Shown piece by piece: positions 16,826-33,890 of a stretch of 64,000 nucleotides of DNA; the first letter of the stretch is position 1, and each line of letters opens with the position of its first letter. Source of the stretch: Aeromicrobium ginsengisoli (GTDB lineage Bacteria > Actinomycetota > Actinomycetes > Propionibacteriales > Nocardioidaceae); the NCBI RefSeq assembly GCF_004134905.2, contig NZ_SDPQ02000003.1, positions 434,001 through 498,000 of the forward strand, given 5' to 3'. The notes beneath the pieces are model-generated. The model searched no databases, was not told where the DNA came from, and saw nothing but the letters and a program-made list of their open reading frames with translations. The position numbers and the translations under genes were made by a program.

Positions 16826-17044
16826 TCAGGTGTTGGAACCTTGCTGGATCTTGTTGGAGTTGTCCTCGACGACGCCCTGGATGACCTTGGCGACCACGAG
16901 CGCGAGGACGACGACGACCGCCGAGATGATGGCCCACTCGATCGCGGAGGCGCCGCGCTCGTTGAAGCCTGCACGTCGTGCCCGGTCTGCGCGGGCGTGG
17001 ACGTACGCGATGATTGCCCTGGCGTAGAACAGTTCTGCTGACAC
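16826..17044 (-). CDS. Flp-type pilin (type IVb) candidate
   Basis: 72 residues from GTG 17044. A 32-residue basic leader ends in NERG, followed by ASAIEWAIISAVVVVLALVV. That is a class IVb prepilin cleavage site (after Gly) with Glu at mature position 5, followed by about 38 more residues. This is the expected major pilin of the Tad pilus. A GGGGG stretch (17053-17057) lies 8 nt before the GTG. It directly follows the TadC gene. Confidence 0.85.
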   Translation of the reverse strand: MSAELFYARAIIAYVHARADRARRAGFNERGASAIEWAIISAVVVVLALVVAKVIQGVVEDNSNKIQQGSNT

Positions 17045-17076: not shown

Positions 17077-17979
17077 CTACCTGAGCTGGCTGACGGCTGG
17101 ATAGGCCAAGAATACCAAGAACGCTATGCACATCAGCAGCTGTGCCATCAACATCGACTGCGAGCTCTCGCCAGCCGCTCCCTCGATGTCGACCATCTCC
17201 TTGCGACGCATGCTCTCGGCCCGTGCCATGAGGGACAGGCGGATCCTCGCGCCCTCGTCACCGGCCAGGGCGAGGGCCGACGCCAGGTCGCGCAGCTCGT
17301 CGACGCCGAGGTCACGGCCGAGCCTCGCGATGCCCTCCCACGGGGTCCAGCCCATGATGCGGGCGTTGGACAGCGCCTGGCGCATGCGCACCATCGCCCA
17401 GTGGTCGCCGAACGACGACGCCGCCATGAGCGCCTCGGGGAGGCCTCGTCCACCGGCGAGGTTCATCGCCACGAGATCGAGGAATGCGCCGGTCACGTGA
17501 CGGAAGTCGCGGCGACGCGACTCGGCCTCGCGGTGCAGGGTCAGGTCGGGCAGGAAGAAGGCGAAGATGCCCGCAATGAGTGCGAACACGATCGGGAGCC
17601 CACCGTTGCCGCCGAACCCGAACAGGAAGACCACGGCGGGGAACCAGATGAACGCGGTCAGGCCCAGCAGTGCCTTGGTACCGAGGTGCGTGGTCATCGG
17701 CCGGTTCATGACCGCGAGATCCTCACGCGTACGCATGAGCTGCCAGCCGCGAGCCGAGACCTCGGCCTCGATGCGCTCGCCGACGGTCTCGCGGATGCGC
17801 TCGAGTCGGCCGTCGGCGCCCGCCCCGGCAGCGCTCGCCGTGAGCGACCGACGTGAATGGCGCGTGCGGTCGAGCCTGCTGAGGGTCGCGGCGACACCGG
17901 GCACAGGACGGCTGAGCAGCACCACGATGATGAGGATGCCGGCGCCGACGCTGGCGCCTGCGAGCAGCTCGAGGATCAT
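17077..17979 (-). CDS. tadC: TadC-like type II/IV secretion F-family membrane protein
   Basis: 300 residues. Four hydrophobic segments flank a cytoplasmic T2SSF domain (about 155-270), with FLDLVAMNLAGGRGLPEAL as its recognisable start. Together with TadB it should form the inner-membrane platform that TadA drives during pilus assembly. The start overlaps the TadB stop by 4 nt. Confidence 0.88.
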   Translation of the reverse strand: MILELLAGASVGAGILIIVVLLSRPVPGVAATLSRLDRTRHSRRSLTASAAGAGADGRLERIRETVGERIEAEVSARGWQLMRTREDLAVMNRPMTTHLGTKALLGLTAFIWFPAVVFLFGFGGNGGLPIVFALIAGIFAFFLPDLTLHREAESRRRDFRHVTGAFLDLVAMNLAGGRGLPEALMAASSFGDHWAMVRMRQALSNARIMGWTPWEGIARLGRDLGVDELRDLASALALAGDEGARIRLSLMARAESMRRKEMVDIEGAAGESSQSMLMAQLLMCIAFLVFLAYPAVSQLR

Positions 17980-18860
17980 GCTTCCGGCACCTTCGTCGTG
18001 GGGGTGATGAGGAAGCGTTCGGGCTCGCTCACACCGGACAGGCTGCGGAGCCAGAACACGCTGAGGCCGAAGACCGCGAGCACCACGGCCAGGACCGTCT
18101 GACCTTCGACGGTGCCGTAGGGCTTGACGTACTCGCGGTTGAAGAGCACGAGCAGGGTCGCGACGCCGGCGATGACGCCCACGACGACCTGGACGCTGCG
18201 GCGGGTGCTGCGCCGGCTCGACTCCACCCGGCGACGTACGTCGAGCTCGTCGCGGGCCGAGCTGGCCAGCGCCGTGAGGACGTCACGCAGGCCCGGACCG
18301 CGGAGGCGGGCGTTGAGGATCAGGGCCGCGACGACGAGGTCTGCGGACGGGTCGTCGAGATCCTCGGAGAACTTCATGAGCGCGTCGGGCAGAGGTTCGC
18401 GTACGCGCAGGCGGTCGACCAGGAGGTTGAGCGCGGGGCGGATCGACGGGGCGGCGTTGACCGCGGTCGCCGGGATCGCCTGCTCCAGGCCGACGGCACC
18501 GGCGATCGTGTCACGAAGAGCCTCGATCCAGCCTGCGAGCCCTTCGATGCGGGCGATCGCCGCTCGTTCGTGGCGGGCGCCGCCGAACACGCGGTCCCAG
18601 AAGGCGACCAGCGCGCCGAGCACCACGGCGAGGACGACCCAGCGGGTCAGCGCGAGGATCACGACGCCCACGAGCGCTCCGGCGAGCAGCTGCTGCCCGC
18701 GGCGCCGGGTCGTACGCGAGGACACCCTGCGGCGCTGCGGCGTCGCGCCCTCGACCGTGCCGGACTCCCCGCCCCGGAGCGCGAAGACCAGGAGCACGCA
18801 GCCGAGGCCGAGCAGTGCTCCCGTCGTGACCGCGAGGGGTATCCGGTAGTCCTCCAACAT
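17976..18860 (-). CDS. tadB: TadB-like type II/IV secretion F-family membrane protein
   Basis: 294 residues. It has N-terminal helices (about 7-28 and 58-88), a T2SSF domain (about 105-235, from GWIEALRDTIAGAVGLEQAI) and two C-terminal helices. It is the partner platform protein of TadC. The gene lies 3 nt after tadA and overlaps tadC by ATGA. Confidence 0.88.
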   Translation of the reverse strand: MLEDYRIPLAVTTGALLGLGCVLLVFALRGGESGTVEGATPQRRRVSSRTTRRRGQQLLAGALVGVVILALTRWVVLAVVLGALVAFWDRVFGGARHERAAIARIEGLAGWIEALRDTIAGAVGLEQAIPATAVNAAPSIRPALNLLVDRLRVREPLPDALMKFSEDLDDPSADLVVAALILNARLRGPGLRDVLTALASSARDELDVRRRVESSRRSTRRSVQVVVGVIAGVATLLVLFNREYVKPYGTVEGQTVLAVVLAVFGLSVFWLRSLSGVSEPERFLITPTTKVPEA

Positions 18861-18863: not shown

Positions 18864-20171
18864 CTAGGTCCACCTGCCGTGGACCATGGGCTGGTAGCCG
18901 TGGTCCTGGAGGTCGGCGATGCAGCCGATCGGCGAGTGCGGCACGGCCCGGCCGTCGCCGTCCGGCGCGAACACCTCGTTGGACAGCACCTGGCCGTCGT
19001 GACCGACGACCTCGCGGATGCTCTCGACGACACGGACCTGTCCGCCGCCGGTCGCGTGGTCGTTGTGCTTGCGGATGAACACGACGAAGTCGAGGGCGCC
19101 GGCGATCAGCATCGTCGTGGCCTCGAGCGGCAGCCGCTCGCGGCTCTGGATCGCGTAGGTGCCGATGCGGTTGAACACCTCGAGCGAGGAGTTGGCGTGG
19201 ATCGTCGACAGCGAGCCGTCGTTGCCTTGGCTCATGGCGTTGAGCATCGTGACGATCTCGTCGCCCAGCACCTCACCGACGATGACCCGCGAGGGGTTCA
19301 TGCGCAGCGAGCGGCGTACGAGCTCGGCCATCGAGACGTGGCCGAGGCCTTCGGAGTTGCCGAGCCGCTCCTCGAACGAGACGACGTTGGGGTGCAGGTC
19401 CTCGTACTCGCCGAGGCCGACCTCGAGGGCCCGCTCGACGGTGATGAGGCGCTCCGACGCCGGGATCACGTTGGCCAAAGCGCGGAGCATCGTGGTCTTG
19501 CCGGCGTTGGTCGCTCCGGCGATCATGATGTTCTTGCGCGCCTTGACCGCGGCGGTCAGGAACGAGCCGATCTCGGGCGACATCGTGCCGTTGGCGACGA
19601 GCTCGTGCAGGAACACCCGGCCGAGGCGCGCCTTGCGCACCGAGATCGACGGTCGCGCGCACACGTTCATGACGGCGGACAGACGCGACCCGTCGGGCAG
19701 CCGGAGGTCGAGCTGCGGGTTGGCCGAGTCGAACGGCCGGCTCGACAGGCCGGTGTGGGCGGCCAGGACCTGGACCAGCTCGACGAGCTCGTCGTCGGTC
19801 TCCGCGACGGGCGGGTGACGCTCTTCACGCCCGTCGGCGTACTGGACGAACACGTGGTCACAGCCGTTGATGTCGATGTTCTCGACGTCGGGGTCGGACA
19901 GCAGCGGCTCGAGCCGGCCGACGCCGAACAGTGCCGAGTGGATCGCGGAGGCGACCTGGCCCTCGATGTCGGCCGGGATCGGCGAACGGCCTTCGGCGAC
20001 CTCGTAGCGGGCGTGGTCCTCGAGGACCTGGATGATCAACGACCGGGCGTACTCGCGCTCGTCGTCGACGTTCATCGGTGCGACGCCGCTGATCTGGTCG
20101 CGGCGACGCTGCTCGTTGAGCCTGTCGGCAACCTGGCCGCGGAGCGCACGGACGAGGTCGTGGTCGATCAT
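18864..20171 (-). CDS. tadA: TadA/CpaF pilus assembly ATPase
   Basis: 435 residues. Walker A is GATNAGKT (219-226) and Walker B is RVIVGEV (295-301), followed by the GE-DE pair and the His-box GSLSTIHA (319-326). The N-terminal domain (about 40-200) has the CpaF pattern FGVGRLEPLLSDPDVENIDING. It hydrolyses ATP at the cytoplasmic face to power pilin assembly. The start overlaps the TadZ-like gene by 4 nt. Confidence 0.93.
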   Translation of the reverse strand: MIDHDLVRALRGQVADRLNEQRRRDQISGVAPMNVDDEREYARSLIIQVLEDHARYEVAEGRSPIPADIEGQVASAIHSALFGVGRLEPLLSDPDVENIDINGCDHVFVQYADGREERHPPVAETDDELVELVQVLAAHTGLSSRPFDSANPQLDLRLPDGSRLSAVMNVCARPSISVRKARLGRVFLHELVANGTMSPEIGSFLTAAVKARKNIMIAGATNAGKTTMLRALANVIPASERLITVERALEVGLGEYEDLHPNVVSFEERLGNSEGLGHVSMAELVRRSLRMNPSRVIVGEVLGDEIVTMLNAMSQGNDGSLSTIHANSSLEVFNRIGTYAIQSRERLPLEATTMLIAGALDFVVFIRKHNDHATGGGQVRVVESIREVVGHDGQVLSNEVFAPDGDGRAVPHSPIGCIADLQDHGYQPMVHGRWT

Positions 20172-20962
20172 GAGGCAACCTCCGGGCTGGACTGCTCGAC
20201 CGGCCGGAACGCGCCCATCGTGCGAGCCGCGAGCTCGTCGACGATCGGCTGCGCCGAGCGTACGAGCTGCGTGCGGGCGGGATTGCCGACGACCTGGCCC
20301 AGGAAGAAGCCGGCCCCGGTCTCGTCGGTCGCCAGGTGGTGGACCGCCGCGACCGGCGTCGCTGAACGCTCGATGGCGTCACGGATCTCGTTGACGGTGC
20401 GCGAACGCTTGGGAGGCGCGACCACGACGACATAGATCGGCGCACCGGCGGCCCCGCCGAGCGTGTCGCTGACCTTGCGCAGGCGCTCGCGCAGATGCAC
20501 GACGCTGCTCGGCACGGTGTCGACGAGCATCACCACTGCCGATGCCGAGGCCAGCAGGGCGTTCTGCGGCGTCTCGGCTCCGATGCGGCCGAGGTCGACG
20601 ACCGTGTCGGTGCCGGGGAGGTGCGCGAACAGCAGGCCGAGCTGGCCCCACTGGCCCAACCCCGACGCCTGCTCCGGCGCCGTCATGCCGGTGACGACGT
20701 CGAGCCCGCCGACGATCTGCTCGACGTGCTGGGAGACCAGCTCGGGATAGAGCGACTTGCGGCCGGCGGCCACGAGGTTGAGCAGGCCCGGGTTGGGATC
20801 GAGCGGCTCGCCGTCGATGCCGGGCATGCGCAGCGCGACGTCACCCCCCGACGGGTCGCACTCGACCATGACGCTGGGCCGCGGCCACAGGGCGGCGAAC
20901 AACAACGCCGCCGTGGTCACGCCGGGCGATCCCTTCGCCGAGGCAACGGCAACCATTCCCAT
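20168..20962 (-). CDS. TadZ/CpaE-like MinD-family protein with atypical P-loop
   Basis: 264 residues. It has the MinD/ParA fold: an N-terminal strand MVAVASAKGSPGVTTAALLFAAL with a deviant Walker A. The family's first Lys is present (AKG), but the usual GK[ST] lysine is Val (GVTT). VECDPSGGDVALR (34-46) is a switch-like segment. TadZ proteins place the pilus machine at the cell pole. The missing P-loop Lys may mean weak or no ATP hydrolysis. It sits between the SAF gene and tadA. Confidence 0.82.
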   Translation of the reverse strand: MGMVAVASAKGSPGVTTAALLFAALWPRPSVMVECDPSGGDVALRMPGIDGEPLDPNPGLLNLVAAGRKSLYPELVSQHVEQIVGGLDVVTGMTAPEQASGLGQWGQLGLLFAHLPGTDTVVDLGRIGAETPQNALLASASAVVMLVDTVPSSVVHLRERLRKVSDTLGGAAGAPIYVVVVAPPKRSRTVNEIRDAIERSATPVAAVHHLATDETGAGFFLGQVVGNPARTQLVRSAQPIVDELAARTMGAFRPVEQSSPEVAS

Positions 20963-20965: not shown

Positions 20966-21634
20966 TCAGGCCTCGCAGGTCTGCTTGACGAGGGTGCTCT
21001 CGCCGCCGATCAACGCCGGCGTGATGGACCTGTCCTCGATGCCCTGCGACACGACCGATAGGCACGAAAGGTCGATCGACACGACGATCGCGACCTCGTC
21101 GCCACCCGAGCCGGCGATCGCTCCGCCCTGCTCGTCGCCGACCGAGATCAGCTCGGCGCGCACGGTCTGCCGCTTGCCGCCGTCGGACGTACCGATGTCG
21201 AGCGCGAGCTGGTCACCCGACTGCAGGCCGCTGATGAACGGCGACGCGTCGACCGTGACCGTGAGGCGGGTCTGGTTCTCGCTGAGGCCGGACTTGTCCG
21301 AGACCATCGAGCGCATCAGCACCGTGCCGGGCAGCAGCCGGGCCGCGGCGGACTTGCCCACGATGCTGTCGGAGTCCGACGACGGGACGCCGCCCTTGAA
21401 CCCTTCGGGCAGGCTGACGCGGGTCAGGTCGTCCTTGGAGATCGTCGCGCCCTGGGCGACCTCCTGGTCGACCTGGACGAAGTACGAGCGGTTGCCCGAC
21501 TGGATCGCCAGCCAGGCCGAGGCCAGCGCGCCGCCGAAGATCAGCAGGACGGCGAGGCCGATCAGGGCCGGACGGGACTCCCGGGTCGAGGGGAGCCGCG
21601 AGACGGTGGCCTGGTTCGCGCTCGGTCGTGCCAT
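20966..21634 (-). CDS. SAF-domain protein, CpaB/RcpC-like
   Basis: 222 residues from ATG 21634, preceded by GAGAGG. One membrane helix (about 24-45) is followed by a SAF domain (about 55-125, VDQEVAQGATISKDDL...LLPGTVLMRSMV). This is the layout of Flp pilus assembly CpaB, which in diderms binds at the envelope. The C-terminal part (about 130-222) has two Cys that may pair. An upstream ATG at 21664 lacks a ribosome site. It is the first gene of the Tad part of the block. Confidence 0.82.
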   Translation of the reverse strand: MARPSANQATVSRLPSTRESRPALIGLAVLLIFGGALASAWLAIQSGNRSYFVQVDQEVAQGATISKDDLTRVSLPEGFKGGVPSSDSDSIVGKSAAARLLPGTVLMRSMVSDKSGLSENQTRLTVTVDASPFISGLQSGDQLALDIGTSDGGKRQTVRAELISVGDEQGGAIAGSGGDEVAIVVSIDLSCLSVVSQGIEDRSITPALIGGESTLVKQTCEA

Positions 21635-21756: not shown

Positions 21757-22095
21757 TCAGCGAGAGCTCTTGGGGCCGGGCGTTGCAGGAGCTGAGGACG
21801 GCGTGCGGTCCTGTTGCTGCTGTTCCTTCTTCTCGTTCGCCTCGGTCTTGCGGAACGCCTCGGTCACGGCGAGGGCTGCGACGATGACCGCGACGACGAT
21901 CAACCCGACGACCAGCGCCGGCCAGACCCGGCGGTGCTCGCGCCAAGTGCGACGGCTGCCGTGCAGCAAGGCCGACCGCAGCTGCCGACGCCGCATCGCG
22001 TCGGCCTCGAGGACGTAGCGCTCGGCGTTGGGCGTGTTCTGCATCGCCGACCGCGGCCCGACGGGAGGCGGCCGGTGGCCGTCCTGCTCAGTCAT
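21757..22095 (-). CDS. Single-pass membrane protein, type VII/Tad block
   Basis: 112 residues. The basic cytoplasmic N-terminus (ERYVLEADAMRRRQLRSALLHG) leads into one membrane helix (about 58-80), then a charged Glu/Lys/Gln and Pro/Ser-rich tail. The start overlaps the MinD-like gene by 8 nt, so it belongs to the same operon as EccD. No family recognised. It could be a small accessory subunit. Confidence 0.7.
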   Translation of the reverse strand: MTEQDGHRPPPVGPRSAMQNTPNAERYVLEADAMRRRQLRSALLHGSRRTWREHRRVWPALVVGLIVVAVIVAALAVTEAFRKTEANEKKEQQQQDRTPSSAPATPGPKSSR

Positions 22096-23212
22096 GCCTC
22101 GACCTGCGACCGGCCACGAGCCCGGCGACGCGCAGCATCGCCTCGCGGGTGGCCGGGCTGACATGTGCCGGGTCGTACGCGTGACCGCTCTGCAGGTGCG
22201 GATCGGGTGGGACGACGACGACTGCAGCGCCGGGTGCTCCGCCGAACTCGCGCTGGGCGTCGCGGTGGGACTGCTCGTGGGAGCAGACGACGACATTGAT
22301 CGCCGATGCGGCGGCCTGGGGGTTGACGACCTTGATGCGGTCGAGCGCCGCCCGCAGGGCGTGGACGCCGAGCTCGCCCGGGCTCGTCACGACGACCACC
22401 TGGTCGGCCCTGGCGAGAGCCGAGTGGCCACCCTCGCCCGCTTCGTCGCCGACATCGAGCAGGTTGAACGTGTGGTCGGACCGCAACCGGTCGAGGACCC
22501 CGGCGACGTCGGCGCGGGTCAGGCCCTGGTCCCAGCCCGATCCGTCGACGAGTCCCAGGCCGGTGGCCGCGGCCGGCGGCGTGGTCGCCTCGACCTCCGA
22601 CAGCATCGAGGTCACCGTGCGCGGCTCCGCAGCGCCGAACGTACGCCCGAGGGACGGCGAGCCCTGTTGGACATCGACGACGACGCTGTGGTCCTCACGC
22701 ATCGCCATGAACGCTGTGCCGACGCCAACGGCGATCGTGGTGCAGCCCACACCGCCCTTGCCGGCGACGAAGGCGATGATGCGGCGATCGGTCTGTCGCT
22801 GGCGGATCGCGTCGACGGCCTGGCGCTCACCCTGGACGGCCAGCGCTGCGTCGGGCGTCGTGAGTCCCTTGGCGACGGTGCGCAGCAGGCGACCGGTCTG
22901 CCGGGGCGCGGGTTCGGGCGTGCCGGTGCGCGACAGCAGCTGCTCGGCGGCCGACGGCGAACGTACGGAATCGTCCGGCACCGGCTCCGGCTCAGGAGGC
23001 GGCGCGTCGAACTCGGGACGGATCGGCACGACCCGTGCTCGCGGCTCGTCGACGTCATCCGGCTCCGCGCGTGGCGGCGTGCGCGGCTCGGGATCGCCGA
23101 GGCCGAGACTGCGAGGGTCGATGCCCATGCGGCTGAGATCGCTGGCTGCAGACTGCGCCTGACGGCGATCACGCAGCGACTGGTCGGGCTGGTCCTGGTC
23201 GTCGTCGGACAT
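22088..23212 (-). CDS. MinD/ParA-like ATPase of the type VII block
   Basis: 374 residues. A disordered, acidic, Pro-rich N-terminus (about 1-125) precedes a MinD-like domain starting RIIAFVAGKGGVGCTTIAVG. The Walker A is again deviant: GKGGVG is intact but the P-loop Lys is Cys (GCTT). NTP-binding-like elements VVVDVQQGSPSLG and DHTFNLLDVGDEAGEGG follow. Proteins of this type (for example EspI-like) accompany actinobacterial ESX systems. The ATG overlaps the eccD stop by one base (TGATG). Confidence 0.8.
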   Translation of the reverse strand: MSDDDQDQPDQSLRDRRQAQSAASDLSRMGIDPRSLGLGDPEPRTPPRAEPDDVDEPRARVVPIRPEFDAPPPEPEPVPDDSVRSPSAAEQLLSRTGTPEPAPRQTGRLLRTVAKGLTTPDAALAVQGERQAVDAIRQRQTDRRIIAFVAGKGGVGCTTIAVGVGTAFMAMREDHSVVVDVQQGSPSLGRTFGAAEPRTVTSMLSEVEATTPPAAATGLGLVDGSGWDQGLTRADVAGVLDRLRSDHTFNLLDVGDEAGEGGHSALARADQVVVVTSPGELGVHALRAALDRIKVVNPQAAASAINVVVCSHEQSHRDAQREFGGAPGAAVVVVPPDPHLQSGHAYDPAHVSPATREAMLRVAGLVAGRRSRHD

Positions 23213-24567
23213 CAGAAGACCCCTCCCATCTTCTCGTAGATGCCGAGGGCACCGAACAGCACGACGAGGAGGTCGACCACGACGAGGAACTCGACGACGT
23301 TGAGCCAGCGCTTGACCCGGGCCCGCGTGATCTCGGACATCTGCAGCGTCGACAGCGCAACCGCCGCCAGCAACACCAGGGCGATGGCGACGACGAGCCA
23401 CGGCGTCGTGGACTCCTCCTCGACGGCGAAGCGGACCGCCGCGAACACGACGACCGCGATGCCGGCAACGCGCAGCGGCAGCATGTGCGGCGTACGGGAG
23501 AACAGCCGTGACCGGAGGATGGCTGCGGCAGCCAGCGTCAGGGCCAGCGTGCGGTCCCACGAGCTGCCGGCCAGGTCGAGGGCGATGCCGCCCCACGCGA
23601 CGACCAACGAGATGCCGACGAGCGAGCCGATCAGGACCGCGTTGCTCGCGCGATAGCGGGCCCGCAGCGTGACGAGGTCGAGCCGTCCGACGTGGCGTAC
23701 GCGGTAGTCCGCGCTGGCCAGACCGCCGACCGACAGCGACACCAGTGGGATGACGCCGACGACCATGAGGACGACGACCGGGAGGATGCGGCGGTAGTGG
23801 TCGACCGGGACGTCGGTCCAGCCGACGATCGCATAGCTGAGCCCCGCGACCAGGACGACGGCGCCGACCGCGAGGTGGCCGGTCGCTGCGGGAGTCAGGA
23901 GGCGGGCGATTCCGGCGACCAGGGCGACCGACACGACGGTGATCGCGAGGACCTCCCAGCTGTCGACGTCGGCGCGGTCACCCAGCACCGCCCCCGCAAG
24001 GGCGGCGAACACCATGGCGCCGGCGGCCGCGACCTGGGCGTCGACGACGCGCGCGAACCGGGAGGACCACCAGGTGACGAACAGCAGGATCGCAGTCGTG
24101 AGCAGCGTCGCGGTCGGGGTGACGACGTCATCGAGGCGGCCACCCTCGTCGAGCTGTCCAGCAGCCCAGGCGATCACGCCGAGCGCAGTCAGCACCGCGA
24201 CGCCGAGGATCACCGTGAAGGAGCGCGTCGTCAGCGTCGACCAGACGCCGCCCGACGCGTCGACGCTGTCCTCGACGGTGTCGCGTACGTCCTCGACCGC
24301 CACCGGGCGGACGTCGTCGTCCTGCGCCCGCAGCTCGAGGATGTCGCCGTCGAGCACGCCGGCGTCACCCAGCGTCTGCGCCAAGGACAGCGAGGCGCCA
24401 CCCAGGTGGGCGAGGGTCCAGCTCGTCGGCGAGCCGTTGGTGTTGTCGGGTGCGGCGTAGCGCATGACCTGCGGCAACACGTCGGCCAGCGGCAAGGCAT
24501 TGGGGAGCGCGAGGTCGATCGTACGATCGGTCGTGACGACCGTGACCCGGCTGTATGCAGTCAGCAA
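23212..24567 (-). CDS. eccD: EccD-like type VII secretion membrane protein
   Basis: 451 residues. The N-terminal about 85 residues have the YukD/ubiquitin-like pattern (RVTVVTTDRTIDLALPNALPLADVLPQV), followed by about eleven hydrophobic helices. EccD forms the membrane vestibule of ESX systems. The start is TTG at 24567 with AAGGGGG ending 7 nt upstream, which supports it. It is divergent from eccC across 120 bp and heads the long minus-strand block. Confidence 0.88.
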   Translation of the reverse strand: MLTAYSRVTVVTTDRTIDLALPNALPLADVLPQVMRYAAPDNTNGSPTSWTLAHLGGASLSLAQTLGDAGVLDGDILELRAQDDDVRPVAVEDVRDTVEDSVDASGGVWSTLTTRSFTVILGVAVLTALGVIAWAAGQLDEGGRLDDVVTPTATLLTTAILLFVTWWSSRFARVVDAQVAAAGAMVFAALAGAVLGDRADVDSWEVLAITVVSVALVAGIARLLTPAATGHLAVGAVVLVAGLSYAIVGWTDVPVDHYRRILPVVVLMVVGVIPLVSLSVGGLASADYRVRHVGRLDLVTLRARYRASNAVLIGSLVGISLVVAWGGIALDLAGSSWDRTLALTLAAAAILRSRLFSRTPHMLPLRVAGIAVVVFAAVRFAVEEESTTPWLVVAIALVLLAAVALSTLQMSEITRARVKRWLNVVEFLVVVDLLVVLFGALGIYEKMGGVF

Positions 24568-24687
24568 CGGTCAACCCCCTTGACGTCACGGTATGCCAGT
24601 GGCCGCACCTTGCGGGCTCGAGATGGCGCTAGCGAGCATATCGTTGACCCACGCCACCACACATCCGCTCATCGAACCCGGGGACTC

Positions 24688-27600
24688 ATGACGACTGCAC
24701 TGGTGAAACGTCCGGCCCGCATCGAGCCACCCAGCACGCAGTCCGCGCCGCTGTCGATCGAGGCTCCGCCCATGAAGGGCCAGGCCGCGCCGGCGATGGC
24801 CGGCGCCAGCATGATGATGATGCCGATCATGAGCGGCACCGGCTCGGTCACGGTCGCGATCACACAGCGCGGTCGGCCCATCGTGGCGGTCGCGGCGCTG
24901 CTGGCACTGATCGGGTCGATCGCGATCGGCGTCATGATGATGATCAGCCAGCGCAGCGGCACCAAGCGCCAGGTGCGCGAGGGCCGGGAGCGCTACCTCG
25001 ACTACATCGAGGCGCTCCGTCACACGGCCCGCGACCAGATCGCGAGCCAGCGCGCCGAGCAGGCGTGGCGCTACCCCCGCACCGACGAGCTCCTCGACAT
25101 CTGCCGCGACGACACCCGCCGCTGGGAGCGTCGCCCGTCGCACCTTGACTTCCTCTCTGTACGGCTCGGCACGGGCGAGGTCCCGCTCGCCTCGGGCCTG
25201 ACCCTCGATGCCGACACCGGCCCCCTCAACGACTTCGACCCCGTGTGCCTGCAGGCGGCTCAGGAGCTGACCCAGCGCTACTCGTCCCTGCGCGCCCAGC
25301 CCATCACGCTGAACCTGCGCGACATCGGCCAGACCAGCGTCATCGGCCGGCCGTTCCAGCGCCGAGCCCTGGCGACCAACCTGGTCCTCCAGCTCGCGAC
25401 GCTGCAGAGCCCCAACGACGTCGAGATCGCGCTCGTACGTTCTGACGACACCGCCGCCGCCTGGGACTGGATCAAGTGGTTGCCCCACACGCAGTCGGGC
25501 AGCGCCCTCGACGGCGACCTGCCGGCGCGACGCGTGACGTCGGACGTGCCGGCGATGGCCGAGCTGCTGGCCCCCGACCTCGAGGCCCGCCTCGACCGGG
25601 CCCAGCGATCGCGTGGTGGCTCGTCGGCACCGTCCTCACACCTCGTCGTGATCGTCGACGGCGAGGGCCTGCAGCCCGGGCAGCACCTCACGTCGCCCGA
25701 CCCGCAGGTGTCGCTCGCAGCCCTCGGCGTGCACGTCGTGTCGCTGCTCGACTCCGCTCGGCACGAGCCCGAGTCGGTCAACGAGCGCATCGAGCTCGGT
25801 GACGACGGCTCGGTCGTCCTCGACTCCCGCGAAGCGCCGTTCACCCTCGACATCGCGCCCGAGGGCGTCGCCTCCTCCGTCGCCCGGGTCCTGTCGGCCC
25901 TCCGCCTCACGATCGAGGACGCGAGCGACGACGGGCTGACCGACACGGTGGGCCTGCCCGACATCCTCGGTGTCGCCGACCCCGCCAGGCTCGACCTCGT
26001 ACGCTCCTGGCGGCCGCGAGCGCTCCGCGACCTCCTGCGGGTCCCGATCGGTGTCGGCGCGACCGGCAACACCGTCGTGCTCGACCTCAAGGAGTCCGCG
26101 CACGGCGGCATGGGGCCACACGGACTGGTCGTCGGCGCCACGGGTTCGGGCAAGTCCGAGATGCTCCGTACGCTCGTCAGCTCCCTCGTCATCGGCCATG
26201 GTCCTGACCGGCTCGCCCTGATGCTCGTCGACTTCAAGGGCGGTGCGACGTTCGCCGCTATGGAGCACATCCCGCACATCGCGGGCATGATCACCAACCT
26301 CCAGGACGATCTCACCCTCGTCGACCGCATGCGCGACGCGCTCTACGGCGAGATGCAGCGCCGCCAGGAGATCCTCAAGGATGCCGGCAACCTGCCCAAC
26401 GTCACGGTCTACCAGGACAGCGTCGACGCCGGCGAGGACCTCGAGCCGCTGCCGCACCTGCTGGTGATCGTCGACGAGTTCTCCGAGCTGCTGACCGCCA
26501 AGCCCGACTTCGCCGAGCTGTTCGTGGCGATCGGGCGCATCGGCCGATCGATCGGCGTGCACCTGCTGCTCGCGACCCAGAAGCTCGAGATGGGCAAGAT
26601 CCGCGGCCTCGAGTCGCACCTGTCCTACCGGATCAGCCTGCGGACGTTCTCCGAGGGCGAGAGCCGCGACGCGATCGGCGTACCCGATGCATTCCACCTG
26701 CCGCCGGAGCCGGGGTCGGGCTACCTCAAGGTCGACACGACGGTGTTCGACCGCTTCAAGGCCGCACTCGTGTCGTCGCCGTACGTGCCGCCGAGCGACG
26801 GGCCCAAGACGTCGGTGCCGGTCGTCCCCTACGTCGCGGTCAACGGCCTCGGTGCCTGGATCGCCGCCCAACAGGCCGCGCTCGACGATCTCGACGGCGA
26901 GATGCGCGTCGACAAGGCCACCTCCAACGCGACGGTCCTCGACGTGCTGTGCGACCAGATCACGGCGTCGGGCTCGGCGCAGGTCCGGCCGGTCTGGCTC
27001 GAGCCGCTGCCCGCCAAGCTCGCCCTCGGTGAGCTGCTCTCGCTCGACGACACATCCGACCCCACGACCTGCGTCGCGGTGCTCGGCCAGGTCGACGACC
27101 CCGGCCACCAGAGCCAGTTCCCCCTCGCATGGGACTTCACGGGCGGCGGCGCCAACCTCGTGATCTCCGGATCGCCCCAGACCGGCAAGTCGACCCTCAT
27201 CCGTACGTTGATCCTGTCGATGTCGATGTCGTACGCGCCGGGCGACGTCATCTTCTACTGCATCGACTACGGCGGAGGGTCGCTCAGCGCGTTGCAGCGC
27301 GTCCCTCATGTCGCTTCGGTCGCGGCCCGGGTCGATCCCGAGCGCATCAGCCGCACCGTCAACGACGTACGCGCAGCCCTCAACCACCGCGAGGCAATGT
27401 TCCGCGAGCACGGCCTCGAGTCGATGGCCGCGTTCCGCCGCGCTCGCGCCGCCGGCACCGTGCCTGACGACGAGCCCGGTGACGTCTTCCTGATCGTCGA
27501 CGGCTGGGGCACGTTCCGCGACGAGTTCGACGACCTCGACTACGCGATCGCCGACATCGCCGCCCGTGGCACCAACTTCGGCGTGCACGTCATCGTCACG

Positions 27601-28653
27601 GTCACCCAGAACATGCAGGTCCGCATGCGCATGCAGGGCTCCATGGGCGGCCGGCTCGAGCTCCGCATCAACGACGCGTACGACTCGGAGTTCGACCGCA
27701 AGGTCATGGAGCAGATCCCCAAGGATGCCAACGGCCGGGGCATCACCGGCACCCGCAACTCGGCGCTGCTGTTCCAGGCCGCGCTGCCGGTGCTCGAGGT
27801 GCCGGACGCATCGGCCGACGACACGGCCCAGCAGACCCTGATCGACGCCGTGCTCGCCAAGTGGGGCGACCGCAGCGTCACCAAGGTCGAGGTGCTGCCA
27901 CGCCTCGTCACGCTGGCAGACCTGCCCCCGGTCGAGCTCGGCGACAAGGGCGTCCTGGTCGGCATCTCCGAGCTCAACCTCGGACCGGCCGAGATCGACA
28001 TCTTCGGCGCCGACCCGCACCTGCAGGTCTACGGCGACGGCGAGACCGGCAAGTCCAACCTGCTCAAGCTGCTGATCCACAACCTGGTCTCCAGCCACAC
28101 GGCGGACGAGATCGGCATCGTCGTGGTCGACTACCGCCGCTCGCTGCTCGACGTCGTCCCGGAGGACTACCTCCTGACGTACGCGACCGGCATGGAGCAG
28201 GCGGCTGCGATGGCGGCCGACGTCGCCGGCGCCATCCGCGCCCGCGTACCCGGCCCCGATGTCACGTCCGAGCAGCTGCGCAACCGTACGTGGTGGTCCG
28301 GCCTCGAGGTGTTTGTCATCGTCGACGACTACGACCTCGTCGCCACGTCCCAGGGCGATCCGCTGGCGGCACTCGTCGACCTCCTGCCGCAGGGCCGCGA
28401 CCTCGGCTTCCACCTCGTGCTCGCCCGACGCACGGGCGGCATGTCGCGCGCCGTGTTCGAGCCGATGATCCAGCGCCTCATCGACCTCAGCGCACCGGGA
28501 TTCATGTTCTCCGGCGACCGCCTGGAGGGCCGACTCGTGGGCGGCCACCCATCACGCAGGCTGCCCAAGGGACGGGCCATGTACGTCACCCGGGACGGCG
28601 CCACGTCGTTGGTCCAGACCGCGCGGGTCGACGATGACCAGCAGGGCAGTTGA
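24688..28653 (+). CDS. eccC: EccC-like FtsK/SpoIIIE ATPase, three nucleotide-binding domains
   Basis: 1321 residues, the size of fused EccC. The N-terminus has a Met-rich stretch (MMMMPIMSG) and a pair of membrane helices (about 50-92). Three FtsK-type ATPase domains follow: Walker A at GATGSGKS (483-490), GSPQTGKS (828-835) and GDGETGKS (1116-1123). The first has a good Walker B (LLVIVDEFSELL). EccC binds substrates and energises export. ATG 24688 was chosen because the same frame upstream is only the antisense of eccD. Confidence 0.93.
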   Translation: MTTALVKRPARIEPPSTQSAPLSIEAPPMKGQAAPAMAGASMMMMPIMSGTGSVTVAITQRGRPIVAVAALLALIGSIAIGVMMMISQRSGTKRQVREGRERYLDYIEALRHTARDQIASQRAEQAWRYPRTDELLDICRDDTRRWERRPSHLDFLSVRLGTGEVPLASGLTLDADTGPLNDFDPVCLQAAQELTQRYSSLRAQPITLNLRDIGQTSVIGRPFQRRALATNLVLQLATLQSPNDVEIALVRSDDTAAAWDWIKWLPHTQSGSALDGDLPARRVTSDVPAMAELLAPDLEARLDRAQRSRGGSSAPSSHLVVIVDGEGLQPGQHLTSPDPQVSLAALGVHVVSLLDSARHEPESVNERIELGDDGSVVLDSREAPFTLDIAPEGVASSVARVLSALRLTIEDASDDGLTDTVGLPDILGVADPARLDLVRSWRPRALRDLLRVPIGVGATGNTVVLDLKESAHGGMGPHGLVVGATGSGKSEMLRTLVSSLVIGHGPDRLALMLVDFKGGATFAAMEHIPHIAGMITNLQDDLTLVDRMRDALYGEMQRRQEILKDAGNLPNVTVYQDSVDAGEDLEPLPHLLVIVDEFSELLTAKPDFAELFVAIGRIGRSIGVHLLLATQKLEMGKIRGLESHLSYRISLRTFSEGESRDAIGVPDAFHLPPEPGSGYLKVDTTVFDRFKAALVSSPYVPPSDGPKTSVPVVPYVAVNGLGAWIAAQQAALDDLDGEMRVDKATSNATVLDVLCDQITASGSAQVRPVWLEPLPAKLALGELLSLDDTSDPTTCVAVLGQVDDPGHQSQFPLAWDFTGGGANLVISGSPQTGKSTLIRTLILSMSMSYAPGDVIFYCIDYGGGSLSALQRVPHVASVAARVDPERISRTVNDVRAALNHREAMFREHGLESMAAFRRARAAGTVPDDEPGDVFLIVDGWGTFRDEFDDLDYAIADIAARGTNFGVHVIVTVTQNMQVRMRMQGSMGGRLELRINDAYDSEFDRKVMEQIPKDANGRGITGTRNSALLFQAALPVLEVPDASADDTAQQTLIDAVLAKWGDRSVTKVEVLPRLVTLADLPPVELGDKGVLVGISELNLGPAEIDIFGADPHLQVYGDGETGKSNLLKLLIHNLVSSHTADEIGIVVVDYRRSLLDVVPEDYLLTYATGMEQAAAMAADVAGAIRARVPGPDVTSEQLRNRTWWSGLEVFVIVDDYDLVATSQGDPLAALVDLLPQGRDLGFHLVLARRTGGMSRAVFEPMIQRLIDLSAPGFMFSGDRLEGRLVGGHPSRRLPKGRAMYVTRDGATSLVQTARVDDDQQGS

Positions 28654-28740
28654 ACCGTCCACTATGAGCAAGGATGTCGCAAATCTGGTCCATGCCATAT
28701 CCTGAGAAAACTGACTGACTCAAACAGGGGGTAATTCACG

Positions 28741-29100
28741 ATGACTTCAGATCGCGTATCACTGTCCGAGGGCTATGAGGGCGCCCTCCAGCAGAACAAG
28801 AACCTCGCCACTGAAGGCGAGAACGCGCACGGCCTCTCCAAGAAGCAGCACAACCACACGGCTGACCTGCTGGGTCAGAACAAGGGTGCGCTCGCGACGC
28901 AGGCCGGCAACGGCTCGACCGCCGCGGCCAACAGCCTCTCGGCCGGTGCGCTGATGCACACCAACAACGCTGCTGGTGGCGCCGACTACCTGCGCCGCAC
29001 CGCCGGCCACGAGGACACGGCGTCGCACGACCAGGCCGGCGAGTCCCGCAACGTCGAGAACTCCGCGTCCGACCTCACCGCCAAGATCAACCGGGCCTGA
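28741..29100 (+). CDS. Small helical WXG100-like protein 1 (no Trp)
   Basis: 119 residues, all predicted helical. Length and position right after eccC suit a WXG100/ESX substrate, but there is no W-x-G motif and no Trp or Cys. It has a run of Asn/Gln/Gly/Ala (QNKGALATQAGNGSTAAANS) in the middle where a turn would lie. The single Tyr near 82 (ADYLRRTAG) is not a YxxxD/E signal. GGGGG (28727-28731) lies about 9 nt before the ATG. Secretion is inferred from context. Confidence 0.7.
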   Translation: MTSDRVSLSEGYEGALQQNKNLATEGENAHGLSKKQHNHTADLLGQNKGALATQAGNGSTAAANSLSAGALMHTNNAAGGADYLRRTAGHEDTASHDQAGESRNVENSASDLTAKINRA

Positions 29101-29129
29101 CAGCCCCTTTCCGACTTCAAGGAGACATC

Positions 29130-29435
29130 ATGAGTGATCAGCTTCGCGTAGACCGTGGGTCCGTCCAGCAGCACGTCGACGACACCCGCTCCAACATGGC
29201 CAACTTCCGCGAGACCGGTGAAGGTGCCGATCGCCAGCAGGCCCACCTCCAGAACCAGATGGAAGGTGGCGTCGGCTCCGACCTGCAGGCCCAGACGCGC
29301 TCGGTCAGCCGCCACCACGGCGAAGAGATCGACACCAACGTCAACAAGCTCGCCGGCAAGACCTCGGAGAACACCGACGAGTTCATCGCCAACGTCCGCA
29401 GCGCGGCCAACAAGTCGCTCAACACGATCAACTGA
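29130..29435 (+). CDS. Small helical WXG100-like protein 2 (no Trp, Tyr or Cys)
   Basis: 101 residues, the length of WXG100 proteins, with two long amphipathic helices around a GVGSD turn (about 47-51). The canonical WxG turn is replaced by GG. Helix 2 carries EEIDTNVNKLAGKTSENTDEF, a WXG100-like heptad pattern. ATG 29130 has AAGGAG upstream. It lies 29 nt after protein 1, so the two may pair as a heterodimer; that is inference. Confidence 0.75.
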   Translation: MSDQLRVDRGSVQQHVDDTRSNMANFRETGEGADRQQAHLQNQMEGGVGSDLQAQTRSVSRHHGEEIDTNVNKLAGKTSENTDEFIANVRSAANKSLNTIN

Positions 29436-29443
29436 GGCTCGCC

Positions 29444-29800
29444 ATGGGTGGATCCAGCGACGTCACCGGCGTCGAAGTCGGTCAGCTGCACAAGGTCGGG
29501 ACCACGGTCTCGGGACGCTCGACGTCGGGTCATGCCGCGGCGAAGGGACTCAAGGAAGGCCTCGACAGCGCGTCGGGCGGCCTTGGGCACCCCATCGTCG
29601 GCACGGCTCTCACGAGCTTCGTGAACGACCACGTGCTCGACGACTCGGGCAAGCTGGGCAACCTGCTCACCGACGGTGGCCACAACGTGTCCAACGTCGC
29701 GTCGACCGCGCGCAACAGCGACGAGCAGGGCGGCGCCAACCTCGCGGCGCCGATCAGCACGACCTCTGAGGTCGGCGACCGCATCAACCGCCAGGTCTGA
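29444..29800 (+). CDS. Small Gly/Ser-rich substrate-like protein 3 (no Trp, Tyr or Cys)
   Basis: 118 residues with a more mixed, Gly/Ser/Asn-rich composition than the two before it. It contains GTALTSFVNDHVLDDSGKLGNLL, a helix-like core, and lacks aromatic residues other than Phe. Only 8 nt separate it from protein 2. No known family. It is followed by a strong hairpin (29839-29876), so the three small genes form a closed transcription unit. Confidence 0.7.
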   Translation: MGGSSDVTGVEVGQLHKVGTTVSGRSTSGHAAAKGLKEGLDSASGGLGHPIVGTALTSFVNDHVLDDSGKLGNLLTDGGHNVSNVASTARNSDEQGGANLAAPISTTSEVGDRINRQV

Positions 29801-29838
29801 CACCGGCTCCGGCCGGTCCGCGGACCGCAAAGTACGAC

Positions 29839-29876
29839 ACTGACGCCAACGGGACGCACGTCTCGTTGGCGTCAGT
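29839..29876 (+). terminator. Hairpin after the small-protein cluster
   Basis: 17-bp stem (one G-T wobble), ACTGACGCCAACGGGAC / GTCTCGTTGGCGTCAGT, with a GCAC loop. No long T-run follows. Confidence 0.7.
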
Positions 29877-29984
29877 CATTCACTGGAGAAGTGGCAACGA
29901 GTCACCCTGTCGCATGCCGGGCCGACGGGGCCGAGGGCTACTACTAGACTGATCGACAGACATGCCGAACACGGGGGTATAGAC

Positions 29985-32528
29985 ATGGTCGCGCGGACTG
30001 ATGGACCGTTCGAGTACTGGGAAGTCACGGGCGATGCCGTGCGTTCTGCGGCGGAGGCGCCCGGTTCCAACGCCGACGTGATCCAGTCGCTGGCCGGCGA
30101 GCTCGAGGGCGACGAGACCCGCGCCGCCAACGCGATCGAGGGCGACATCGAGGCGGGGGTCACCGCCAACACCACGGCCGCCAAGACGACTGCTCAGAAC
30201 CTCGCCGCCAAGGGTCAGTACGCCGTCGGCCTGCTCAAGCAGTTCGGCGCCGACGTCGACACGTTCGACACCACGGTCAACCAGATCAACATCGACTACA
30301 AGACGCGCTACGACAACACGATCTTCGGCATGCACCACCAGCCGGAGTACCGCACCGGCGAGGAGACGATCGACTACGCCGCCGTCGCCGCCTCGATCAA
30401 GGCCGACCTGATGGCGCGCTACCACAAGGCCGAAGGCGTCATCGACGACGCCGCCGACACCATCGCGTCGATGTTCAAGCAGGGCCCCACTGACGCCAAC
30501 GTCAAGGAGCTCATGATCGCCGGGCTGATCCCGCTCAGCGCTGCGAGCGTGTTCCCGGGCGTCACGCTGACGGACTCCGAGAAGCAGCAGGCGCTCGCCA
30601 ACACGATCAAGGGCATGACGCCGGAGCAACAGGCGCAGTACGTCAAGGACCACAAGGAGATCGACGCCAAGACCGCTGAGGTCATCTCCCCCGAGGCCCA
30701 GAAGATCCTCGCCAGCGACGTCGCCGACGACATCAAGAACAAGACGATCGACGCCGAGTCCGTACGCATCCTGGGCCTGATGCAGAACTCGGCGCCGTTT
30801 GCGCACGCGTTCTACAGCCAGGTCACACCCGATCAGATGACCGGCGCGATCGAGAAGCTCTCGAGCGAGGCCTACCCCAACGGCCCGTTCCACGCCGGCG
30901 TCGGCAGCACGGGCGCCGATCCGCTCGACAAGGGCAAGATCGACCTCTACAAGAACTTCCTCTCCGCGGCCGGCGGAACCCTCGCGACGTACTCCAAGGG
31001 CACCGGCGAGTACGCACCGCCCGCCGACGCCGGGATCACGTGGGGCAAGGCGATCACCGACGAGGACCACCCCCAGAACGCCGGCGCGCTCAGCCTGCTG
31101 CTGCGCGAGGGTGGCGAGAACCACGAGTTCGACGGCAAGTTCCTGTCCGACGTCGCCGACACCGTCTACACGTACGAACGCGACCACGAGGACGACCAGC
31201 CGTGGGGCTCGCGCGGCTCGCAGGTCATCGACCCCGACGCCAAGATCGGCAACAACGACGACAACATCTGGGGCGTCCGCAGTTTCGACGCCATGGCGAA
31301 CGTCCTCGGCGCGATGAAGGAGAGCCCCGACGCGGCACAGATGTTCTTCGCCGACGGCTACCCGGACGGCGACACCTCCAAGGACAACAGCCGCCTCGAG
31401 TACCTCCTCACCGAGCGGTCGTTCAGCAAGGACCTGGCCGACTGGAAGTCCGGCGACGAGGGCGACGGGCTGGGCCTGGCGCTCGAGGCGGCGACGATCG
31501 GCCACGACACGCGCAACCAGCTCGGCGCCGACCTCGCCTCCGACGCGTTCACGATCATCGCCGAGAAGAGCGGCAGCGGCGACTCGGGCTGGAGCCCGGT
31601 CGACGGCAAGTGGCACACCTGGCCGGGCCTGACCGACAGCCTCGGCACGATCGCTGCGGGCTACGTCGGCGACATCTACGACACGATCGACAACAACCCG
31701 CCCGGCGACGGCCCGCACCTGCAGATCTCGCAGGAGAACCTCGACAAGCTGCTCGGCGAGATCGGGCGCGGCGAGGACAAGAGCGGCATCGAGACGCTCA
31801 CCGCGGCGGCCGTCATGGAGGGCAACAACCGCATCGGCGAGCACATCCGCGACTGGCAGGAGGACCACCCCGGCGAGCCGCTCACGATGGAGGCGTTGTC
31901 CAAGTCTGGCCTGGGCAGCCTGCTCGAGGGCCGGGGCTCGACCAACGGCGAGATCCTCAAGCACCTGCTCGACAAGTCCGTGCTCGTCGACGTCGACGAC
32001 GAGAAGCTGGCCGAGACCCGCGCGGCCTATGTTGCCAAGGCGTTCGACATCGCCACGAGCTTCGCTCCCGGCGCGGACAAGGTCTTGAGCGCGACCGCGA
32101 GCGAGGTCAGCAAGACCACCTACGACACGCTCAGCGGCGAGGCGCTCAGCCTGCTCGGCGACAAGGTCAGTGCGGCGCCGGACGCCCTCTCGACGAAGTA
32201 CACCGAGGACCAGACCAAGGCACTGCCCAACCAGATCGAGTACGGGCTGGTCAACCAGCTGCACCAGAGTGGCTACCTCGGCAAGCAGGGCGACTACGCG
32301 GGCATACCCGACTCGTTGCTGACCGGGCCCGAGGGGCACCAGACCATCCGCCCCGATCTCTACGATGCCGACGGCATCGAGAAGTTCGACACCAAGGGCC
32401 TCACCGCCGCGCAGGTGGCACAGATCAAGGAGGACTGGCGCACCTGGCAGGAGAGCGATCCTCGCGCGTTCTCCGAGACGCTCAGCGCCTCGGTCCTCAA
32501 CGGATTCGATCGCGCGGTCCGCGAGTGA
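29985..32528 (+). CDS. Large 847-aa type VII-linked protein, function unknown
   Basis: 847 residues with no signal peptide and no membrane helix. The N-terminal about 110 residues (from FEYWEVTGDAVRSAAEAPGS to IDYKTRYDNTIFG) form a long-helix region like the LXG/WXG leaders of large type VII substrates. The rest is helical and rich in Asp, Gly and Lys, with DKGKIDLYKNFLSAAGG and WTYW-poor segments that match nothing I can name. Cys appears absent. GGGGG (29973-29977) precedes ATG 29985. The stop overlaps the next gene as GTGA. It could be an effector or a surface protein. Confidence 0.75.
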   Translation: MVARTDGPFEYWEVTGDAVRSAAEAPGSNADVIQSLAGELEGDETRAANAIEGDIEAGVTANTTAAKTTAQNLAAKGQYAVGLLKQFGADVDTFDTTVNQINIDYKTRYDNTIFGMHHQPEYRTGEETIDYAAVAASIKADLMARYHKAEGVIDDAADTIASMFKQGPTDANVKELMIAGLIPLSAASVFPGVTLTDSEKQQALANTIKGMTPEQQAQYVKDHKEIDAKTAEVISPEAQKILASDVADDIKNKTIDAESVRILGLMQNSAPFAHAFYSQVTPDQMTGAIEKLSSEAYPNGPFHAGVGSTGADPLDKGKIDLYKNFLSAAGGTLATYSKGTGEYAPPADAGITWGKAITDEDHPQNAGALSLLLREGGENHEFDGKFLSDVADTVYTYERDHEDDQPWGSRGSQVIDPDAKIGNNDDNIWGVRSFDAMANVLGAMKESPDAAQMFFADGYPDGDTSKDNSRLEYLLTERSFSKDLADWKSGDEGDGLGLALEAATIGHDTRNQLGADLASDAFTIIAEKSGSGDSGWSPVDGKWHTWPGLTDSLGTIAAGYVGDIYDTIDNNPPGDGPHLQISQENLDKLLGEIGRGEDKSGIETLTAAAVMEGNNRIGEHIRDWQEDHPGEPLTMEALSKSGLGSLLEGRGSTNGEILKHLLDKSVLVDVDDEKLAETRAAYVAKAFDIATSFAPGADKVLSATASEVSKTTYDTLSGEALSLLGDKVSAAPDALSTKYTEDQTKALPNQIEYGLVNQLHQSGYLGKQGDYAGIPDSLLTGPEGHQTIRPDLYDADGIEKFDTKGLTAAQVAQIKEDWRTWQESDPRAFSETLSASVLNGFDRAVRE

Positions 32529-33121
32529 CCCTGCACCCCCGCCTGATCCACAGCCTGCGGACCGCTGCAGTCGTGCTGGTCATCGGCACGGGTCTCGCCG
32601 CCTGCGACGGTGGCTCGGACGGCCCCAAGCCGCCGATCGACTCGACGCTCGTCGACGGCAAGGTCTGTGGCCTGTTCGACCCGGATCTCGTGAAGTCCGT
32701 CATCGGGCACGACGAGATCAAGGTTCGCGGCACCGGCATCGGGGACGTCACCAAACGGACGGACGACACGATCGACTGCGACGTCGTCGATGACCGACGA
32801 GTCGCGTCCACGATCCAGGTGATCGTCGCAGAGCAACCTGACGCGAGCGATCACGCGTCGACCGAGACGATGCTCACGAACGAGCTGGCGGGCAAGACCG
32901 ACTGCTCGCAGCCCGCCAGCATCACCGAGCTCGGTCCGGGCTACGTCTGCACACGGGAGGACGGCCAGGTCCAGCTGAACGTCCTGCTCCCCAAGCGGCT
33001 GGTGCGGCTCTCCTATCAGCCCGGCCCCGATGCCAAGGGCGACGCCACCGCGACCGCGGTCAAGCTGGTCAAGGACGTCGACGCCAACATCGACGCGTAC
33101 GACAAGAAGCACGCTGGCTGA
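32525..33121 (+). CDS. Lipoprotein coupled to the 847-aa protein
   Basis: 198 residues from GTG 32525, overlapping the previous stop by 4 nt. The lipobox GTGLAACDGGSD places the lipid-modified Cys at about residue 25. The mature domain has three further cysteines (about 49, 82 and 119) that could form disulfides. No family recognised. The coupling suggests it is anchored near the product of the large gene, for example as a receptor or a protective partner. Confidence 0.75.
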   Translation: MTLHPRLIHSLRTAAVVLVIGTGLAACDGGSDGPKPPIDSTLVDGKVCGLFDPDLVKSVIGHDEIKVRGTGIGDVTKRTDDTIDCDVVDDRRVASTIQVIVAEQPDASDHASTETMLTNELAGKTDCSQPASITELGPGYVCTREDGQVQLNVLLPKRLVRLSYQPGPDAKGDATATAVKLVKDVDANIDAYDKKHAG

Positions 33122-33751: not shown

Positions 33752-33800
33752 CCTGCGGCAATGTGTGACAGGGCAGACAGTCGCGCATTCGGAGTTTGAC

Positions 33801-33829: not shown

Positions 33830-33833
33830 TAAG

Positions 33834-33850: not shown

Positions 33851-33890
33851 GCTGACCATGTGCAGCGCGTACCCCCAAAGGATTGCTGGC

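What the first reader, a model, noticed from the sequence alone, without database searches (positions are those of the whole stretch)
21757..33121. Reduced type VII secretion locus next to a Tad pilus locus
EccC and EccD, a MinD-like ATPase and a one-TM protein are present, but EccB, EccE, mycosin and a canonical WXG100 pair are not seen in 11 kb. The eccD operon runs straight into the Tad operon on the same strand. The substrates beyond eccC are unfamiliar. It may be a minimal ESX-like exporter that works with the Tad machine.
Basis: partly seen in the sequence, partly recalled or inferred. Interest (0 to 1): 0.75.

Follow-up and report, generated by a model that had tools for sequence, protein, structure and literature searches.

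The report
Stripped-down secretion system beside adhesion pili
Next to the genes for a sticky surface pilus this soil bacterium carries a slimmed-down version of the ESX-type protein export machine, lacking several parts thought essential, and in related bacteria a type VII motor gene of this or a second atypical kind lies beside this kind of pilus in almost every genome checked, which suggests the two machines work together.

Summary
An Aeromicrobium-type genome carries an intact EccC, EccD, MinD-like ATPase and one-TM protein. The whole 4.0 Mb assembly has no full-length EccB, no EccE, no ESX-linked mycosin and no WXG100 above cut-off. The order EccC <> EccD-MinD-oneTM-CpaB-CpaE-TadA-B-C-Flp-TadE is conserved across Nocardioidaceae, so this is not decay. 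New points: (1) The one-TM protein matches, by profile, the N-terminal helix plus TM of EccB, the part that forms the membrane 'basket' in ESX-5, and travels with this EccC even without Tad (Glycomyces, Actinoplanes, Fodinicola). So the system keeps an EccB/C/D ring and has dropped the periplasmic chamber. (2) Tad adjacency is not local: of 86 assessable genomes with this TadA clade, in several families, 84 have a type VII ATPase within 25 kb, mostly a second, EssC-like type. (3) Downstream genes encode WXG100-like hairpins and a fast-diversifying all-helical protein related to EspA-like/DUF6571 families. Best reading: a new actinobacterial T7SS variant exporting EspA-like cargo, functionally partnered with a Tad pilus. 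Partnership is inferred, not shown. I found T7SS-Tad adjacency reported before only for Bacillota T7SSg/h (PMC11217815).

The parts
24688..28653 (+). eccC: 1321-aa T7SS motor ATPase
   Evidence: TIGR03924/03925 above cut-off; closest solved chain T. curvata EccC 4nh0
23212..24567 (-). eccD: N-terminal YukD/ubiquitin-like domain plus EccD membrane domain
   Evidence: matches EccD3 and EccD1 structures; alignment A1
22088..23212 (-). MinD/ParA-like ATPase with Pro-rich N-terminal extension (EspI-like position next to eccD)
   Evidence: conserved in relatives
21757..22095 (-). 112-aa one-TM protein, proposed mini-EccB (N-terminal helix plus TM only)
   Evidence: profile match to EccB N-terminus over 60 columns, E about 1e-5; controls at most 23% probability; travels with this EccC without Tad
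28741..29100 (+). 119-aa conserved small protein, candidate substrate/partner
   Evidence: alignment A5; no family hit
29130..29435 (+). 101-aa WXG100-like helical hairpin with GGVGSD turn in place of WXG
   Evidence: 6 of 9 members hit WXG100, best E 2.9e-4; AF2 helices 9-45 and 50-100
29444..29800 (+). 118-aa conserved small protein, candidate substrate/partner
   Evidence: no family hit
29985..32528 (+). 847-aa all-helical candidate substrate with conserved ~230-aa N-terminus and diversified remainder
   Evidence: AF2 model; relatives hit TPR_23 EspA-like and DUF6571; C-terminal part diverged between near-identical systems
32525..33121 (+). lipoprotein overlapping the stop of the 847-aa gene; candidate partner or immunity protein
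   Evidence: ORF with lipobox-like LAACDG; same pairing in L062, L070, L073; no family hit
20966..21634 (-). cpaB/rcpC (SAF domain)
   Evidence: Pfam SAF
20168..20962 (-). cpaE/tadZ-like ATPase
   Evidence: conserved position; no Pfam hit at 0.01
18864..20171 (-). tadA/cpaF motor ATPase
   Evidence: T2SSE
17976..18860 (-). tadB
   Evidence: position and conservation
17077..17979 (-). tadC
   Evidence: T2SSF
16826..17044 (-). Flp-type pilin, 72 aa
   Evidence: translation GASAIEWAIISAVVVV; read by eye, same place in L085 and L091
16417..16806 (-). tadE-like pseudopilin 1
   Evidence: Pfam TadE
15977..16420 (-). tadE-like pseudopilin 2
   Evidence: Pfam TadE
15336..15980 (-). tadG-like protein
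   Evidence: Pfam Tad/TadE

Best explanation
The locus encodes a distinct, functional T7SS variant. Its inner-membrane ring would be EccC, EccD and a mini-EccB that keeps only the N-terminal helix and TM, with an EspI-like MinD ATPase; the periplasmic chamber (EccB ectodomain plus mycosin) and EccE are gone. EccC would export WXG100-like hairpins and an EspA-like all-helical ~850-aa protein with a diversified C-terminal part. The operon continues into a complete Tad pilus, and I infer the two are a functional pair: the pilus makes surface or cell contact and the T7SS releases its cargo there, under shared expression. Shown: gene content, genome-wide absences, synteny, cross-family association. 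Inferred: ring architecture, secretion, and partnership with the pilus.
For: EccC/EccD above curated cut-offs. EccB, EccE and WXG100 absent genome-wide. Same order in Aeromicrobium, Mumia and several other Nocardioidaceae lineages. One-TM protein matches EccB N-terminus from two divergent lineages (hhalign probability 83 and 86, E 9e-6 and 5e-6; controls at most 23) and sits beside EccD/EccC in Glycomyces without Tad. In ESX-5 the EccB N-terminus plus TM forms the basket, and its ectodomain with MycP the chamber (PMC8131196). EccC within 25 kb of TadA in 28 of 29, 24 of 24 and 32 of 33 assessable genomes. T7SS type differs on the Tad tree while adjacency is kept, on either flank. Cargo C-terminal region is shared between the two T7SS types, E 1.4e-18.
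Against: No experiment shows secretion, co-transcription or interaction. Genomes are not phylogenetically independent. This EccC type occurs without Tad nearby in Glycomyces, Actinoplanes, Fodinicola and a second copy in G056, so Tad is not required for it. The mini-EccB match is a ~60-column profile alignment that includes a TM helix, and p112 gave no significant hit to solved structures.
Confidence: 0.6

Rival explanations
1. Both machines are real but only neighbours: adjacency is an old syntenic accident kept by descent, with no functional link.
For: Adjacency can persist by descent; this EccC type lives without Tad in other families; all Tads linked to this T7SS type form one clade.
Against: 84 of 86 genomes across families; two different T7SS types at Tad loci, on either flank; other above-cut-off EccC copies in the same genomes are almost never near Tad (1 of 24); the second TadA clade (50-56% identity), including the one in this genome, was not near EccC in the cases I could check; the same pairing occurs in Bacillota T7SSg/h (PMC11217815).
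Confidence: 0.22
2. The T7SS serves the pilus: the exported all-helical protein is a pilus-associated adhesin or tip/anchor factor rather than an independently acting effector.
For: Same operon direction and conserved order; cargo family shared by the two Tad-linked T7SS types; a diversified C-terminal part would suit a surface antigen.
Against: The cargo family also occurs at an Actinoplanes locus without Tad within ~7 kb (L072); tandem copies each diverged; no adhesin domain found.
Confidence: 0.2
3. The T7SS delivers antibacterial polymorphic effectors, with the downstream lipoprotein as immunity and Tad as the contact device.
For: Conserved ~230-aa N-terminus with diverged remainder between systems whose EccC is 94-98% identical; tandem copies, one with a small lipoprotein between; a lipoprotein overlaps or follows the gene in several species.
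Against: No toxin domain or catalytic motif found; C-terminal regions look like diverging helical repeats (TPR_23/DUF6571), not swapped toxin modules.
Confidence: 0.15
4. A decaying remnant of a canonical ESX locus.
For: Missing EccB ectodomain, EccE, mycosin and canonical WXG100.
Against: Reading frames are intact and the same reduced set is conserved in many species and several families; EccC forms its own well-supported clade apart from EccB-bearing systems.
Confidence: 0.03

Closest known systems
T7SSa / ESX systems (ESX-4-like, mycobacterial ESX-1/3/5)
   Same: EccC and EccD homologous over full length; MinD-like gene beside eccD as in ESX-1 (espI; from memory); EspA-like and WXG100-like candidate cargo
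   Different: EccB reduced to its membrane anchor; no EccE, mycosin or canonical WXG100 pair; EccC is a separate clade; Tad-linked in Nocardioidaceae
T7SSg and T7SSh of Bacillota (Garrett 2024, PMC11217815)
   Different: Other phylum; separate ubiquitin-like protein instead of an EccD; TsgL beta-propeller or TshG/TshM instead of mini-EccB and MinD
T7SSd of Actinomycetota (Olsenella, Bifidobacterium; PMC11217815)
   Same: Actinobacterial T7SS without EccB, EccE and MycP
   Different: T7SSd has FHA domains on the ATPase, a kinase and no ubiquitin-like protein
Tad/Flp pilus
   Same: Expected assembly genes including an Flp-type pilin
   Different: T7SS genes sit directly upstream in the same orientation

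Membership tests
T7SSa (ESX) | EccC motor with TIGR03924/03925 match | tested here: met
   761 and 696 bits
T7SSa (ESX) | EccD with ubiquitin-like domain | tested here: met
   TIGR03920, YukD, PF19053
T7SSa (ESX) | Full-length EccB | tested here: not met
   No PF05108 match in the whole assembly; only an anchor-like 112-aa protein
T7SSa (ESX) | EccE | tested here: not met
   Best E 0.67; EccE is also absent from some ESX-4 (PMC11217815)
T7SSa (ESX) | Mycosin MycP | tested here: not met
   Only a sub-cut-off S8 protease elsewhere that also occurs in genomes without type VII EccC
T7SSa (ESX) | WXG100 (EsxA/EsxB) pair | tested here: inconclusive
   None over cut-off genome-wide; one degenerate WXG100-like hairpin, partner not identified
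T7SSa (ESX) | EccC groups with EccB-bearing systems | tested here: not met
   Separate clade with 99-100 SH-aLRT support
T7SSg / T7SSh | Adjacent Tad pilus genes | tested here: met
T7SSg / T7SSh | Separate ubiquitin-like protein; TsgL or TshG/TshM | tested here: not met
   Ubiquitin-like domain is fused to EccD; no such genes among the annotated neighbours
T7SSg / T7SSh | ATPase clusters with TsgC/TshC | not tested
   Those sequences were not held
Tad/Flp pilus | TadA, TadB/C, TadE/G, CpaB, Flp pilin | tested here: met
   (pilin by eye)
Tad/Flp pilus | Prepilin peptidase (TadV/CpaA) | not tested
   Not among the locus genes; not searched genome-wide

The most novel reading that the evidence does not exclude
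T7SS and Tad form one composite export machine in actinobacteria: with the T7SS periplasmic chamber lost, EccC hands its cargo to the Tad apparatus, which carries or displays it outside the cell, and different T7SS motors can be plugged into the same kind of pilus.
Probability: 0.12. Interest if true: 0.92.

Novelty: new variant of a known kind. Interest (0 to 1): 0.68.

Why it matters
Garrett and colleagues (PMC11217815) left open whether T7SS-Tad neighbours in a few Bacillota genera are coincidence. The pairing seen here, in another phylum, with two other T7SS types and in 84 of 86 genomes, makes coincidence unlikely and the link testable in ordinary soil actinobacteria. A T7SS that keeps only the EccB anchor would also help define the minimal inner-membrane translocon and show which parts serve the mycobacterial outer envelope.

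Tried and rejected
Decay: rejected by conservation. Missing parts elsewhere in the genome: searched and not found. T. curvata EccC (4nh0) as a member of this clade: high phmmer score, but the tree puts it with EccB-bearing systems. One-TM protein as a Tad part: rejected, since it sits beside EccD/EccC in Glycomyces and other genera without Tad. First hhalign of p112 against EccB failed because wrong frames were taken for some EccB rows; repeated with correct rows. p847 fold search in the PDB gave only weak helical-repeat matches. Solved-structure searches with the small proteins and p112 gave nothing. The idea that the cargo C-terminal domain is Tad-specific: not held, since Actinoplanes L072 has it without Tad nearby.

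Full report
What is there. The window lies in a 4.0 Mb, 99.9% complete assembly (G000). Its closest relatives with named records are Aeromicrobium species, Nocardioidaceae. On the minus strand an operon-like block runs eccD (24567-23212), a MinD/ParA-like ATPase (23212-22088), a 112-aa one-TM protein (22095-21757), then cpaB, cpaE, tadA, tadB, tadC, an Flp-type pilin and three TadE/TadG-like proteins. Divergently, on the plus strand, lie eccC (24688-28653), three small proteins (119, 101, 118 aa), an 847-aa protein and a lipoprotein whose start overlaps the 847-aa stop codon. EccC and EccD score above NCBI's curated cut-offs.

What is missing. Genome-wide searches found no EccB, no EccE (best E 0.67) and no WXG100 above cut-off. 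The mycosin model finds a subtilisin-like protease on another contig, below cut-off. The same kind of hit occurs in same-genus genomes with no type VII EccC (e.g. G019, G024, G027), so it is not taken as an ESX part. At E <= 1e-60 this genome has a single EccC match, the one in the window. The refutation by a second complete ESX locus is therefore not met.

Conservation. tblastn of the window proteins against 20 loci and 26 further loci from named records shows the same order, from TadE3 through CpaB-oneTM-MinD-EccD <> EccC, in Aeromicrobium, Mumia and several other Nocardioidaceae lineages. EccC of this type forms one clade (SH-aLRT 99-100) with Actinoplanes, Fodinicola, Glycomyces and Actinorhabdospora homologues. 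It is separate from the EccB-bearing systems, among which T. curvata EccC (4nh0) falls. In Glycomyces the one-TM protein, EccD and EccC are contiguous with no Tad nearby. In Actinoplanes and Fodinicola the EccC <> EccD-MinD-oneTM block stands without Tad in the stretch held. So the one-TM protein is a T7SS part, and the likeliest history is that Tad became joined to a pre-existing T7SS unit in the Nocardioidaceae.

The one-TM protein. Profile-profile comparison of its family with the N-terminus of EccB (rows taken from EccB-bearing relatives) aligns 60 columns with a single one-column gap (probability 83, E 9e-6). A divergent family from Kribbella-like genomes aligns in the same register (86, 5e-6), and the two match each other (96). 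Seven control families from the same loci reach at most 23. In the ESX-5 structure the EccB N-terminal helix and TM form the 'basket' that links EccD barrels and holds the EccC helices, while the EccB ectodomain and MycP form the periplasmic chamber (PMC8131196). I therefore read the protein as a mini-EccB, and the joint loss of ectodomain and mycosin as coherent. This is inference from sequence; the match is short and includes a TM helix.

Candidate cargo. The 101-aa protein is predicted as a two-helix hairpin with the turn at GGVG where WXG would lie (low pTM). Six of nine relatives hit WXG100, best E 2.9e-4. The 847-aa protein is predicted all-helical with an N-terminal hairpin and has no significant match among solved structures. 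It hits no Pfam family itself, but relatives hit TPR_23 'EspA-like' (7e-15) and DUF6571 (3.5e-13). In G026 and G023, whose EccC is 98% and 94% identical to the window's, there are two tandem homologues each. They keep 64-66% identity to the window protein over ~230 N-terminal residues but at most ~23% beyond that. That is the pattern of exported, fast-diversifying proteins.

The Tad link. Independent genome searches with TadA and with the EccC model were intersected (tally). Among genomes with a TadA at least 67% identical to the window's, the nearest EccC lies within 25 kb in 28 of 29 assessable kin genomes, 24 of 24 further Nocardioidaceae and 32 of 33 genomes of three other families. The second and third sets were looked up after the pattern had been noticed, as a test. 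A rough chance value per genome is about 2%. Most of these EccC proteins are a second type: about 1500 aa, EssC-like, with an N-terminus that by eye resembles ubiquitin-like plus FHA domains (not recognised by Pfam), with WXG100 genes close by in loci examined (L085, L091). Across the Tad tree the T7SS type differs, and in the second type the ATPase lies on either side of the Tad genes. Other above-cut-off EccC copies in the same genomes are near Tad in only 1 of 24 cases (class assigned by bit score). TadA homologues of a second clade (50-56% identity), including one in this genome, were not near EccC in the cases I could check. The C-terminal region of the 847-aa protein is also found in large proteins at the second type's loci (best 1.4e-18), and in Actinoplanes. 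Limits: genomes are related, so the counts are not independent events; this is association, not function.

Known context. T7SSc-j were described in 2024; T7SSg and T7SSh of Bacillota are always next to Tad, and the authors could not say whether this is coincidence (PMC11217815). I found no description of the present EccC/EccD/mini-EccB/MinD type, or of the actinobacterial pairing, in the open-access library; subscription papers were not searched. I file it as a new variant of the T7SS kind: it fails the T7SSa membership test on EccB, mycosin and ATPase clade, while plausibly working like an ESX inner-membrane translocon.

Verdict. Observation confirmed; interpretation partly supported. Most likely a functional reduced T7SS exporting EspA-like and WXG100-like proteins in partnership with a Tad pilus.

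Noticed in passing
G056:C1:842811-844832 (L049): A second EccC of the window's type in a Nocardioidaceae genome, without EccD, one-TM protein or Tad found in the 20 kb held, but with WXG100-like genes.
   Followed up: partly
G000:C2:712721-714004: A second, distant TadA (52% identity) in the window's own genome, with no T7SS ATPase on that contig.
   Followed up: no
G000:C4:231870-232709: Solitary mycosin-like S8 protease, with similar hits in many genus members, including some without any T7SS.
   Followed up: partly
window 10697-15311 (-): Downstream of the Tad genes: a lipoprotein, an exported ~350-aa protein and a LysM protein; counterparts recur beside Tad at many of the other T7SS loci.
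   Followed up: no
L074: MAG contig labelled Geodermatophilaceae whose Tad/EccD genes nest among Nocardioidaceae; mis-binning or transfer.
   Followed up: no
window 33161-35753 (+): HAD hydrolase and acyl-CoA dehydrogenase form a conserved right flank in many Aeromicrobium; cargo genes between it and eccC vary in number.
   Followed up: partly
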